Assembly: GCA_902806075.1 (NCBI GenBank)
Contig: CADCVG010000035.1
Location: 1-40,629 of the forward strand
Source of the DNA: an uncultured Rubrobacteraceae bacterium
Lineage (GTDB): Bacteria; Actinomycetota; Rubrobacteria; Rubrobacterales; Rubrobacteraceae
Length of the DNA stretch: 40,629 nucleotides
Direction of reading: 5' to 3'
The notes under the pieces are model-generated. The model saw only the letters and a program-made list of their open reading frames with translations, was not told the DNA's origin and made no database searches. Both the position numbers and the translations under genes were made by a program. Shown here piece by piece: positions 981 through 7,666 of the stretch (positions are counted from its first letter, which is position 1; each line of letters begins with the position of its first letter).

Positions 981-2831
981 CTACTCTACCGTAACGCTCT
1001 TGGCGAGGTTGCGGGGCTTGTCTACGTCGAGGCCACGGGCCTTGGCGACGTGGTAGGCGAGTAGCTGCAACGGGACAGTCGAGACGAGCGGGCTGAGTAT
1101 CTCTGGCATCTCCGGCACCGGTAGCACGACGCGCGCCACGCGCCCGGCCTTGTCGCCCTCGCGGGCTATGGCTATTACGCGCGCTCCACGGGCGACGGTC
1201 TCCTCGACGTTTGAGAGGGTCTTCTCGCGTAAGGTACCCTCGCCGAGGACGGCGACGACCGGGCACTGCTCGTCGACGAGGGCTATGGGACCGTGCTTCA
1301 TCTCGCCGGCCGGGTAGCCCTCGGCAGGGAGGTAGGAGATCTCCTTTAGCTTCAACGCCCCCTCTAGCGCCGCCGGGTACAGGTGCCCCCGCCCCAAGAA
1401 CAGCGCGCACCGCGCCCCCGCAAAGACCTCGACGGCCTCCCCGACCCGCCCCTCCAGCAGCCCCAGAGCCTCCTCGACCTTCTCAGGCGAACGCCTCAAG
1501 CCCAGCCCGATCTCCGCAAGCTCCTCCGCGGGTCGGGAGCCCCGCGTCCCCGCTAGCTCCAGCGCCAGCAGGTACAGACCCGCGACCTGCGTAAGGAAGG
1601 TCTTCGTCGCGGCGACCCCGACCTCGGGACCGGCCTTCGTAAGGAGTACGGCGTCGGCCTCGCGCGTGATGAGCGAGCCTTGCGTATTCGTCACCGCGAG
1701 TACGCGGGCGCCGAACCCGCGCGCCGCCTCGACGGCGGCCAGGGTGTCGGTCGTCTCCCCGCTCTGGCTTATGGCGACGACGAGGGTACGCTCGTCGCCG
1801 ACGGGGTCGGCGTAGCGGTACTCGCTCGCCACCGCGACCTCGACGGGCAAGCGGGCGAGCCGCTCGATAGCGTACTTGCCGAGTAGCCCCGCGTGGTACG
1901 CCGTGCCACACGCGACTACGACTATGCGCTCTATCCCCGAAAGGTCGAAGTTTAGTTCGGAGAGGTCCACGGCGCCGCCGGCGTCGAGACGGCCGGCGAG
2001 GGTAGCCTGAAGGGCGGCGGGTTGTTCGTGGATCTCCTTTAGCATGAAGTCCTCGTAGCCTCCGAGCTCTATAGCCTCGGCACTCCAGTCGACCTCGAAG
2101 GTCTCCCGCTCGACGGGCTGGCCGTAGAGGGTCTGTATCTCGACCGAGGAGTCGGTGAGTGTCACGATCTCCCCGTTCTCCACGAAGAGGAACCGTCTCG
2201 TATTGCCGAGCAGGGCCTGCACCGCGCTCGCCAGGAAGTTCTCCCCCTCCCCGAGCCCCACGACCAGCGGGCTCTGGTGCCGCGCCGCGACGATGGTCTC
2301 CGGCTCCGTAGCGCTCATCGCCGCGACCGCGAACGATCCCTCCAGCCGCTTCAACGTCCCCGCTAACGCCTCTTTCAACGCCTCCCCGGCCGCCACCCTC
2401 TCGGCCAGGAGGTGCGCGATGACCTCCGTGTCCGTCTCCGAACGGAACTCGCGGCCGCGCCCCTTTAGCTCCTCCCGCAGCTCCACGTGGTTCTCGATGA
2501 TGCCGTTGTGTACCACCGCGACCTCGGGCCCAAGCGGGTCGCCGCCGCCCGTATGGGGATGTGCGTTAGCCTCGCTCGGCCGCCCGTGCGTCGCCCAACG
2601 AGTATGCCCTACCCCTGCCCGCACCTTGAAGAAGTCTCCGTCCCTCCGGCCCATGACGCTGGTGAGGTTGGCTAGCGGGCCTACCTCTTTAGCCGTCTCG
2701 ATGCGGCCCGTCTCCGGCAGCGCCAGGGCGAGGCCCGCCGAGTCGTAGCCCCGGTACTCCAGGTTCTTCAGACCGTCGAGCAAGACCTCGACGCACCGCT
2801 CCTTGCCAACGTAACCGACGATCCCGCACAT
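981..2831 (-). CDS. glmS: Glutamine--fructose-6-phosphate aminotransferase (isomerizing)
   Basis: A 616-residue cytosolic enzyme that makes glucosamine-6-phosphate from fructose-6-phosphate and glutamine, the entry step to UDP-GlcNAc and peptidoglycan. The start MCGIVGYVG places the glutaminase nucleophile Cys2 directly after the initiator Met. The class II glutaminase domain spans about residues 2-225, with HTRWATHG and the GIIEN motif. Two SIS sugar-isomerase domains follow (about 290-420 and 455-590), with SQSGETTDT and ending DKPRNLAKSVTVE, the usual C-terminal signature. A longer open frame exists upstream, but ATG 2831 has GAGGAGG about 5 nt before it and fits the family. A glmS ribozyme lies in the leader, so product feedback on the mRNA is expected. 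Confidence 0.98.
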   Translation of the reverse strand: MCGIVGYVGKERCVEVLLDGLKNLEYRGYDSAGLALALPETGRIETAKEVGPLANLTSVMGRRDGDFFKVRAGVGHTRWATHGRPSEANAHPHTGGGDPLGPEVAVVHNGIIENHVELREELKGRGREFRSETDTEVIAHLLAERVAAGEALKEALAGTLKRLEGSFAVAAMSATEPETIVAARHQSPLVVGLGEGENFLASAVQALLGNTRRFLFVENGEIVTLTDSSVEIQTLYGQPVERETFEVDWSAEAIELGGYEDFMLKEIHEQPAALQATLAGRLDAGGAVDLSELNFDLSGIERIVVVACGTAYHAGLLGKYAIERLARLPVEVAVASEYRYADPVGDERTLVVAISQSGETTDTLAAVEAARGFGARVLAVTNTQGSLITREADAVLLTKAGPEVGVAATKTFLTQVAGLYLLALELAGTRGSRPAEELAEIGLGLRRSPEKVEEALGLLEGRVGEAVEVFAGARCALFLGRGHLYPAALEGALKLKEISYLPAEGYPAGEMKHGPIALVDEQCPVVAVLGEGTLREKTLSNVEETVARGARVIAIAREGDKAGRVARVVLPVPEMPEILSPLVSTVPLQLLAYHVAKARGLDVDKPRNLAKSVTVE

Positions 2832-2933
2832 ATACGCCTCCTCTACGCGCCCCGGTACACAGCCCGAAGCAACAATGTTTCCGGGGAACCCGAAGGAGGC
2901 AAAGAGAAGCAATGGTATTACCCGGGCGTGGGA

Positions 2934-3080
2934 GGCGCTTTGTCCCCGGCGTCGCCGCCGGAATTTGTCGCCGCCCTATCGACCGCCCGTCTGCCGAGAC
3001 GCACCCGCCGAATAACTCGATGAACGTCTGCCTCGTCAACTCCCTCCGCCCGGTGGGCTCGGGGAGTCCTGGCGCTTTGT
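2934..3080 (-). promoter_or_regulatory. glmS ribozyme (glucosamine-6-phosphate-activated self-cleaving riboswitch)
   Basis: About 100 nt upstream of glmS the minus strand carries the conserved glmS ribozyme core in order. The cleavage-site motif AGCGCCAGGAC has G+1 at 3075, so cleavage would fall between 3076 and 3075. A P1 stem ACTCCC/GGGAGT pairs 3062-3067 with 3039-3044. Then come TTGACGAGG (3039-3031), a P2a-like pairing AGACG/CGTCT (3029-3025 with 3001-2997) enclosing CATCGAG and TTCGGCGG, and a distal stem with a GCGA tetraloop. In this class glucosamine-6-phosphate acts as cofactor for self-cleavage, which destabilises glmS mRNA. The 3' boundary is approximate. No other gene is supported in the leader region 2832-3255. 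Confidence 0.93.
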
Positions 3081-3255
3081 GTTTCGCTCCTTCTTGCCGA
3101 CCTCTTGCAGGTCCCACTTGTCTACAAGCCCTTTATCGACCGTACCGTGTCTTTACTCTAGCGATCCTCCGATCTCCGCAAACTACACGGCTTTAATGTA
3201 ATCCGTCGGGGGCGGAAAGGAAAGGGCGAAATCCGAAAGCCACAACGGGTTGTGG

Positions 3256-3705
3256 TCAGGAGCGTAGCACGATAATAGCACCTGTGACGACGAGGACGGC
3301 GCCGCCGAGCCTCGGGAGAGTAATGGGGTGGACAGGCAGGTTGAGCAGACCGAACTGATCGAGGATGATGGAGGCGAGCACCTGTCCCGAGATGATGAAT
3401 CCTATGGTGGTCACCGCCCCGAGGCGCGGGGTCAGAATGATGGAGGCGGCCACGTAGAACGCCCCGAGAAAGCCCCCGGCCCACGCCCACCACGGCGCCC
3501 CGGAGAGGCCGGCGAGGGTCGGCGTCCCCTCGCGCGCCACGAGGACGGCCACGAGGAGCGCTATAGTCCCGACGAAGAACGAGAGGGCCGCCGCCGTTAT
3601 AGGCCCGCCGACCGCCCCGCGCAACTGGGCGTTGACCGCGAACTGCACCGGCACCGCCGTCCCCGCCACCAGAGCCACCAACACCAGGATCCACTCCGCC
3701 CTCAT
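3256..3705 (-). CDS. DMT superfamily transporter, YdcZ/DUF606 type
   Basis: A 149-residue protein with five predicted hydrophobic helices. It shows the pattern of the small YdcZ (DUF606) branch of the drug/metabolite transporters: PVQFAVNAQLRGAVGGPI near the N-terminus, PWWAWAGGFLGAFYVAASI in the middle, and GFIISGQVLASIILDQFGLL towards the C-terminus. The family's substrates are mostly unknown. Three in-frame ATGs are available (3729, 3720, 3705); 3705 is chosen because AGAGGAG lies just before it and the extra residues of the longer forms are charged and atypical. It stands alone, upstream of the glmS leader on the same strand. Confidence 0.85.
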   Translation of the reverse strand: MRAEWILVLVALVAGTAVPVQFAVNAQLRGAVGGPITAAALSFFVGTIALLVAVLVAREGTPTLAGLSGAPWWAWAGGFLGAFYVAASIILTPRLGAVTTIGFIISGQVLASIILDQFGLLNLPVHPITLPRLGGAVLVVTGAIIVLRS

Positions 3706-6476: not shown

Positions 6477-7391
6477 CTACCCCACTATCCGTTTCGTCGT
6501 AGCAAAGCTTACCTTCGCCACATCCTTCAGCCCCTCCATCCCCCGCTCCGCATGGACTCGCCGTCCCGCCCCGATTACGTGTGTCGCCCCCCGGGGCAAC
6601 TCGAACCCAACCAACCCGGAGAGCCGGTCCATCTCCTCCAACTGCCGCCCCCGCGCCAGGATGGAGGCCGCCGCCACCGCGGCATCGTCCTCTGCCCGCG
6701 TCCTCACCTCCAGCCGCACCCCCTCCGGCACGAAAGGCTCCAGATAAGACCTGGCGGCACCGGCATACTCGTCGACAACCACAACCTCAACCTCACCTTT
6801 AAGTTCGCTTATGATTCCCGCGTCTACCTCCCCGAGCAGCTTGTTGACGTTGCCGGCCGCGCTTCGCCGCTTCTCGTACTCGCGTGGCGGGAGCGAGAAG
6901 ACGCGTACGTTTCCTGACCCTAGCTCTCTCTCGATGCTCTCCGCCATCAGCTTCGCCTGGCTAGTGCTGAGGTCCTTCGAGTCTCGTACCCCGATCTCTT
7001 GCAGCTTCCGCGCGGCTTCTCGATCCAGGACTCGCACCCCGGCGACGACCAGCGGACCGAAGTAGTCCCCCTTGCCCGACTCGTCGATCCCGAGCCTGGG
7101 CGTGCCGTCGAGGGCTGGGCGATCTCCGGTACGCACACCTCCCGCCCGTCCGCGAGCCGCCCCTCCCCGCGCCAGCCGCCAGTCCTCGATCAGCGTCTTC
7201 AAGACTGAAGATTTACCTCCGGTCGACACTTTCCCCGTGCGGTAGACGTTCAACGGTACGGTGTCGGAGCCGCGGGTCACGCGGTACTGGGTCCCATAGT
7301 CTATGGGACGGACGAAGGAGACCTCGGCCCCCGAGTCATCGAGGAGGCTTTCGAGGTCGCCCGGTACCCCGTTCTTTGGGGCCTCGTTCAA
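6477..7391 (-). CDS. rnhC: Ribonuclease HIII
   Basis: A 304-residue enzyme that cleaves RNA in RNA:DNA hybrids. The N-terminal domain of about 100 residues ([15 protein letters not shown], then [15 protein letters not shown]) corresponds to the substrate-binding domain that separates RNase HIII from HII. The catalytic core begins at [20 protein letters not shown], with the Asp-Glu pair and the GKG motif of RNase HIII; further acidic residues appear in VVVDEYAG and [16 protein letters not shown]. The proposed start is TTG 7391, overlapping the acyP stop as TTGA; the longer frame runs through acyP. Most actinobacteria are better known for RNase HI and HII. Confidence 0.92.
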
Positions 7392-7666
7392 CGGACCTCG
7401 AAGCCCGAGAGGTCGCCCGAGGGGGCCTCCTTCTCGGTGGAGACGTCCTCGACGTCGGCGCTCGACGGGCCGCTCTTGCACCACTCGACCATCTGGTTCA
7501 CCGTGTCGGGGTCGCCCTCGAAGACCGCCTCCACGTTGCCGTCTCCGGTGTTGCGGACCCAGCCCGCGAGGCCGAGCTTTTCGGCCTCCTGACGCGTCGC
7601 ATCGCGGAAGGATACGCCCTGCACGCGGCCAGAGATCGTTGCGTGTACCCGTTCTTTGTCTGCCAT
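7388..7666 (-). CDS. acyP: Acylphosphatase
   Basis: A 92-residue protein with the complete acylphosphatase pattern: GRVQGVSFR (the phosphate-cradle Arg), then GLAGWVRNTGDGNVEAVFEG containing the catalytic Asn. It hydrolyses carboxyl-phosphate bonds such as acetyl phosphate or 1,3-bisphosphoglycerate in the cytosol. GAGGAG lies about 9 nt before the ATG at 7666. It is the first gene of a leftward run followed with TTGA overlap by rnhC, and is divergent from the glycosyltransferase gene about 100 bp away. Confidence 0.95.
   Translation of the reverse strand: MADKERVHATISGRVQGVSFRDATRQEAEKLGLAGWVRNTGDGNVEAVFEGDPDTVNQMVEWCKSGPSSADVEDVSTEKEAPSGDLSGFEVR

What the first reader, a model, noticed from the sequence alone, without database searches (positions are those of the whole stretch)
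2934..3080. A complete glmS ribozyme in the leader of glmS
The minus strand upstream of glmS contains the ordered conserved core of the glmS ribozyme: AGCGCC with the cleavage site before G3075, a six-pair P1, TTGACGAGG, CATCGAG and TTCGGCGG enclosed by a covarying stem. This class is best known from Firmicutes. Here it appears in a high-GC actinobacterial background, with GC-rich replacements in the helices that keep pairing (AGACG/CGTCT, ACTCCC/GGGAGT). It implies direct control of cell-wall precursor synthesis by glucosamine-6-phosphate.
Basis: partly seen in the sequence, partly recalled or inferred. Interest (0 to 1): 0.7.

Follow-up and report, generated by a model that had tools for sequence, protein, structure and literature searches.

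The report
glmS ribozyme in a Rubrobacter relative
The start of the glmS message in this Rubrobacter relative carries a complete self-cutting RNA switch of a well-known kind, which senses the product of the enzyme it controls; its mechanism is ordinary, and nearly all sampled members of its bacterial class carry it.

Summary
Rfam's glmS ribozyme model RF00234 matches window 3087-2920 (minus) over its full length, 93.7 bits, E 1.1e-20, the only Rfam hit in the window and the only RF00234 hit in the genome. It lies 245 nt upstream of a bona fide glmS (TIGR01135, 773.9 bits). Core residues and both core pseudoknots known from published work are present and invariant in 37 of 37 ribozymes of the class; P1, P2, P4 and P4.1 covary. 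The organism is a Rubrobacter relative; 37 of 39 genomes of its class carry the ribozyme, and the two misses lack a detectable glmS. In 396 sampled genomes of the phylum, 75 have it. An RNase J gene is present, so the Bacillus route (cleavage, then 5'-to-3' decay) is feasible. Cleavage was not tested. New member of a known kind; low surprise. An SD-hiding second switch was tested and not supported. A pyrimidine-rich motif between ribozyme and start codon recurs, unexplained.

The parts
2920..3087 (-). glmS ribozyme, full RF00234 match (model 1-167)
   Evidence: 93.7 bits, E 1.1e-20, gathering score 37
3075..3076 (-). predicted self-cleavage site, between A3076 (A-1) and G3075 (G1)
   Evidence: A and G in 37 of 37 class members; position by homology to published ribozymes (PMC7125110, passages)
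3069..3074 (-). 5' strand of pseudoknot helix P2.2 (CGCC, bulged A, G), pairing with 3006-3010
   Evidence: pairs standard in 37 of 37, never varying
3038..3068 (-). P1 stem-loop (7 pairs; loop variable in length among relatives)
   Evidence: 99.2% of cells paired, two pairs with changes on both sides; G3040 is the equivalent of the L4 tetraloop receptor G33 of B. subtilis
3031..3037 (-). GACGAGG: first strand of P2.1 (C3035 G3034 A3033) and G3031, equivalent of catalytic G40 (T. tengcongensis) / G42 (B. subtilis)
   Evidence: 37 of 37 identical; numbering from passages of PMC11602151 and PMC7125110
2997..3029 (-). P2 (AGACG/CGTCT) enclosing the P2.1 second strand (3018-3020) and the P2.2 second strand (3006-3010)
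   Evidence: P2 100% of cells paired, two of five pairs change on both sides
2980..2996 (-). P3 region (Rfam's nested pairing)
   Evidence: four pairs invariant, so conservation but no covariation
2930..2976 (-). P4/P4.1 peripheral domain with GCGA (GNRA) tetraloop 2955-2952 and IL4 purines AAA 2966-2964 and ACAAAG 2943-2938
   Evidence: four P4 and three P4.1 pairs with changes on both sides; A2952 37 of 37
2832..2919 (-). spacer with Shine-Dalgarno-like AGAGGAGGC (2844-2836) and a pyrimidine-rich TTCTCTTTGCCTCC motif (2908-2895)
981..2831 (-). glmS, glutamine-fructose-6-phosphate transaminase (isomerizing), start ATG, MCGIVGYV
   Evidence: TIGR01135 773.9 bits (cut-off 418.05)

Best explanation
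A genuine glmS ribozyme-riboswitch in the 5' leader of glmS. When glucosamine-6-phosphate is plentiful it binds the preformed pocket, its amine takes part in the cleavage chemistry, and the leader cuts itself between A3076 and G3075; the downstream glmS message then carries a 5' hydroxyl and is degraded from that end by RNase J, lowering synthesis of the enzyme. Shown here: sequence, conservation of structure, position, presence of an RNase J gene. Inferred from the family: ligand binding, cleavage, decay.
For: RF00234 match over the whole model, E 1.1e-20, single copy in the genome. Upstream of glmS in 37 of 37 class ribozymes, AGCGCC 210-401 nt before the start codon. A-1, G1, P2.1, P2.2, the G40 equivalent, the GNRA loop's last A and its P1 receptor G identical in 37 of 37. 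98.1% of cells paired over 39 pairs, 11 pairs with changes on both sides, 0 of 500 shuffles as high for either; slid versions 34.6-53.4% paired. RNase J family TIGR00649 match 604.6 bits, cut-off 400. Role of RNase J1 after glmS cleavage in B. subtilis: passages of PMC3997798 and PMC7125110.
Against: No activity data. One P4 pair in the window is a C-U mismatch (C2973 with U2933), and the score, 93.7 bits, is the lowest of the 37 in the class, though P4 mismatches were reported not deleterious in B. subtilis (PMC11602151, passages). Thermodynamic folding of the leader without pseudoknots is no more stable than shuffles (z -0.98) and its minimum-energy structure lacks the native core. The position equivalent to B. 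subtilis A68 is G (29 of 37 have G, 8 have A), but G is also seen there in two Clostridium saudiense leaders. No sigma-70-like promoter was found upstream.
Confidence: 0.96

Rival explanations
1. A decayed glmS ribozyme that kept the sequence but lost activity.
For: Lowest score of the 37 class members; one P4 mismatch in the window.
Against: All active-site and core-pseudoknot positions examined are intact and identical to 36 relatives; only peripheral P4 deviates.
Confidence: 0.03
2. The ribozyme is joined to a second, translational switch: a hairpin between ribozyme and start codon that hides the Shine-Dalgarno sequence (GCCTCCT pairing with AGGAGGC).
For: In the window the SD is paired almost fully in the predicted ensemble (unpaired 0.00, shuffled mean 0.18, rank p 0.01).
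Against: Across 37 class leaders mean SD unpaired probability is 0.226 against 0.232 for shuffled leaders, 21 of 37 below their shuffled mean, 4 of 37 with p under 0.1; the close relatives L097 and L134 show 0.28 and 0.23. By eye, no consistent compensatory change between the motif and the SD.
Confidence: 0.05
3. A chance or compositional match of a GC-rich leader to the model.
For: GC-rich background only.
Against: E 1.1e-20; conserved and covarying in 37 genomes; four Streptomyces and Phycicoccus loci caught by a loose motif pattern give no Rfam match.
Confidence: 0.005

Closest known systems
glmS ribozyme, Rfam RF00234 (B. subtilis, T. tengcongensis, B. anthracis type)
   Same: Cleavage site, P1, P2, P2.1, P2.2, P3, P4, P4.1, GNRA L4 with its P1 receptor, IL4 purines, position before glmS.
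   Different: GC-rich helices; G at the B. subtilis A68 position; one extra nucleotide in the loop between P2.1 and P2.2 relative to the Rfam consensus. None of these lies outside the family.
Rubrobacter sp. isolate MGR_bin143 glmS leader (L002, same contig as G003 contig 162)
   Same: RF00234 match of 109.7 bits upstream of glmS; GlmS 70% identical.
   Different: Shorter P1 loop and A-rich 5' flank; the pyrimidine-rich pattern does not match its spacer.

Membership tests
glmS ribozyme (RF00234) | Covariance-model score above the curated gathering score | tested here: met
   93.7 bits against 37, full length
glmS ribozyme (RF00234) | Cleavage dinucleotide A-1/G1 followed by the P2.2 strand | tested here: met
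   A3076 G3075, 37 of 37
glmS ribozyme (RF00234) | Core double pseudoknot P2-P2.1-P2.2 | tested here: met
   All 14 pairs standard in 37 of 37; P2 covaries; P2.1 and P2.2 invariant and so silent on covariation
glmS ribozyme (RF00234) | Catalytic guanine (G40 T. tengcongensis, G42 B. subtilis) | tested here: met
   G3031, 37 of 37; equivalence through numbering in PMC11602151 passages
glmS ribozyme (RF00234) | P3/P4 domain with GNRA L4 docking on P1 and IL4 adenines | tested here: met
   GCGA loop, A2952 and receptor G3040 37 of 37; IL4 AAA 37 of 37; docking itself not tested
glmS ribozyme (RF00234) | P3.1 pseudoknot | not tested
   Only Rfam's nested P3 pairs were counted
glmS ribozyme (RF00234) | Located in the 5' leader of glmS | tested here: met
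   245 nt before the glmS start
glmS ribozyme (RF00234) | Glucosamine-6-phosphate-dependent self-cleavage | not testable with these tools
   Needs in vitro transcription
glmS ribozyme regulation by RNase J decay | RNase J encoded in the genome | tested here: met
   TIGR00649 604.6 bits, cut-off 400; decay itself not testable

The most novel reading that the evidence does not exclude
In Rubrobacteria the glmS leader is a two-part device: the ribozyme plus a conserved pyrimidine-rich element ([CT]TCTC[CT], 0-4 bases, [GA]CC) about 50-80 nt before the start codon, which adds a second layer of control, for example by binding a protein or by pairing with the SD or with the purine-rich ribozyme core.
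Probability: 0.07. Interest if true: 0.5.

Novelty: new member of a known kind. Interest (0 to 1): 0.2.

Why it matters
It places a textbook metabolite-sensing ribozyme in an entire high-GC actinobacterial class, where it is found wherever glmS is assembled, so this product feedback on amino-sugar and cell-wall precursor synthesis is not a Firmicutes peculiarity. In a quick GlmS tree these proteins also sit apart from those of common Actinomycetes, among lineages several of which carry the ribozyme, which makes the history of the ribozyme-gene pair testable. It does not change the mechanism.

Tried and rejected
SD-hiding hairpin downstream of the ribozyme: striking in the window alone, rejected as a class feature because 37 leaders average the same as shuffled leaders.

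Second substrate-like copy: AGCGCC recurs at the 3' end of the ribozyme in 10 of 37 class leaders (those with two distances), in the window at 2939-2934 within ACAAAGCGCC. It is made of the conserved IL4 strand ACAAAG plus the P4 strand, is absent in 27 of 37, and is taken as coincidence.

Gene history: a quick tree of 101 GlmS sequences (98 different; first 480 residues; only 10 of the 37 class members given) puts the 10 Rubrobacteria rows in one group, on the side holding Firmicutes, Chloroflexota and others, away from the bulk of the Actinomycetes rows. The tree is quick, midpoint-rooted and warns of long branches; I do not claim transfer. The fork that joins Rubrobacteria with Chloroflexota and Conexibacter has support 88 and is drawn open.

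The promoter scan found nothing; the sigma-70 pattern may not hold in this organism.

Papers: McCown and colleagues 2011 and 2012 on the distribution of glmS ribozymes are not held, so what they list for Actinobacteria is unknown to me; I recall (from no call) that variants in Deinococcus-Thermus were described there. 'glmS ribozyme' with 'Rubrobacter' gave 0 papers; 'Rubrobacter' with 'riboswitch' gave 6, of which I saw passages of one (PMC9331176: Rubrobacter only as an enriched genus, no glmS) and only the listing of the other five. 'glmS ribozyme' with 'Actinobacteria' gave 11, of which I saw passages of PMC2258182, PMC3766115 and PMC3997798. Passages only were seen also of PMC11602151, PMC7125110, PMC6154101, PMC2211319 and PMC9495176. 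This does not prove that the case is not in print.

Full report
Observation. The minus strand of 3087-2920 matches Rfam RF00234, the glmS ribozyme, over all 167 model positions with 93.7 bits (gathering score 37) and E 1.1e-20; it is the only match to any Rfam family above its gathering score in the 40,629-base window and the only RF00234 match in the genome that holds the window, which is 75.16% complete. The predicted cut is between A3076 and G3075.

Context. The next gene downstream is glmS, from ATG 2831 to a stop at 981, NCBIfam TIGR01135 with 773.9 bits. The cleavage site lies 245 nt before the start codon, and AGAGGAGGC stands as a Shine-Dalgarno-like sequence. The gene upstream on the same strand, ending at 3256, is a YdcZ-family membrane protein, Pfam PF04657 with 142.5 bits. 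The second hit of GlmS in the own genome covers only residues 2-231 at 32% identity; from its range I take it for a PurF-type amidotransferase (inference), so glmS is single in the assembly.

Organism. The closest named GlmS is from Rubrobacter sp. MGR_bin143, 70% identical. That contig has the length of G003 contig 162, and the ribozyme hit has the same coordinates in both, so a record named Rubrobacter lies in the window's class and family; Rubrobacteria is a class of Actinomycetota.

Distribution. In the class, 37 of 39 genomes have RF00234 above the cut-off, 22 of 22 among genomes at least 90% complete and at most 5% contaminated. The two without it, G034 and G018, 83% and 82% complete, show no full GlmS either: only stretches of 31-35% identity that cover part of the protein. 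So where glmS is found in the assembly the ribozyme is there, 37 of 37. In a sample of 396 genomes of the phylum 75 have it, 37 in the class and 38 of the 357 others (scored with stricter filters). Of 26 genomes behind named loci, 7 have it: the Rubrobacter MAG, Clostridium saudiense (two copies), a Mitsuokella MAG, Paenibacillus hemerocallicola, Actinobacteria bacterium ATB1, a Ktedonobacterales MAG and a Chloroflexi MAG. Of 14 control genomes, B. subtilis and Deinobacterium chartae ring.

Anatomy. I aligned the 37 class sequences and mapped published helices onto the window by the numbering in passages of PMC7125110 (T. tengcongensis core) and PMC11602151 (B. subtilis). P2.2 (C2-G56, G3-C55, C4-G54, C5-G53, bulged A6, G7-C52), P2.1 (C28-G45, G29-C44, A30-U43) and the A46-U51 pair are intact in the window and in 37 of 37; so are A-1, G1, the catalytic guanine (G40/G42 equivalent, G3031), the IL4 AAA, the last A of the GNRA loop and its receptor G in P1. 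The position of B. subtilis A68 is G in the window and in 29 of 37, A in 8. G also occurs there in both Clostridium saudiense leaders, so it is not peculiar.

Covariation. For the 39 named pairs, 98.1% of cells form standard pairs, 11 pairs show changes on both sides, in 38 cells; none of 500 shuffles is as high on these three measures, and 1 of 500 on further pair types. Slid registers give 34.6 to 53.4% paired. The two-sided changes lie in P1 (2 pairs), P2 (2), P4 (4) and P4.1 (3). P2.1, P2.2 and the Rfam P3 pairs never vary and so neither support nor oppose. The structure was taken from the family and fitted to the window's row, which favours the unslid register. The fold without pseudoknots does not show the native core and is not more stable than shuffles (z -0.98); that speaks against simple folding as evidence more than against the ribozyme, whose core is pseudoknotted.

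Mechanism. By family: glucosamine-6-phosphate enters the pocket and drives cleavage, which leaves a 5' hydroxyl on the glmS message; in B. subtilis RNase J1 then degrades it (PMC3997798 and PMC7125110, passages). The own genome encodes an RNase J (604.6 bits). Ligand, cleavage and decay remain inferred here.

The leader after the ribozyme. In the window the SD is predicted to be buried in a long hairpin. Over all 37 class leaders this is not above chance: mean unpaired probability 0.226 against 0.232 shuffled; 21 of 37 below their own shuffled mean; duplex energies -13.0 against -12.4 kcal/mol, 6 of 37 with p under 0.1. A pyrimidine-rich motif does recur: a pattern I wrote after looking at the leaders matches 17 of 37, against a shuffled mean of 2.0 and maximum of 7, and 1 of 87 crude control leaders from the window. 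The pattern is post hoc and the sequences are related, so this is a lead only.

Verdict. A confirmed, ordinary glmS ribozyme in a less familiar host class: new member of a known kind. Whether Rubrobacter cases are already listed by McCown and colleagues or in the Rfam full alignment could not be seen (not held).

Noticed in passing
window 2895-2908 (minus), and the same region in relatives: Pyrimidine-rich motif TTCTCTTTGCCTCC between ribozyme and SD; a post hoc pattern matches 17 of 37 class leaders against a shuffled mean of 2.0. Unexplained.
   Followed up: partly
window 2934-2943 (minus): ACAAAGCGCC, a repeat of the ribozyme's own substrate strand, at the 3' end of the ribozyme; AGCGCC recurs there in 10 of 37 class leaders.
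   Followed up: partly
L118 and L124 (Clostridium saudiense genome): Two RF00234 matches in one genome, each before a GlmS-like start.
   Followed up: no
window 6477-7484 (minus): RNase HIII-like protein (TIGR00716, 123.6 bits, below its cut-off of 161.2, with RNase HII matches too).
   Followed up: no
GlmS tree (L001, L083, L085, L086, L088, L089, L093, L109, L130, L135): Rubrobacteria GlmS fall on the side of Firmicutes and Chloroflexota rather than with common Actinomycetes; quick tree, unsure root.
   Followed up: partly
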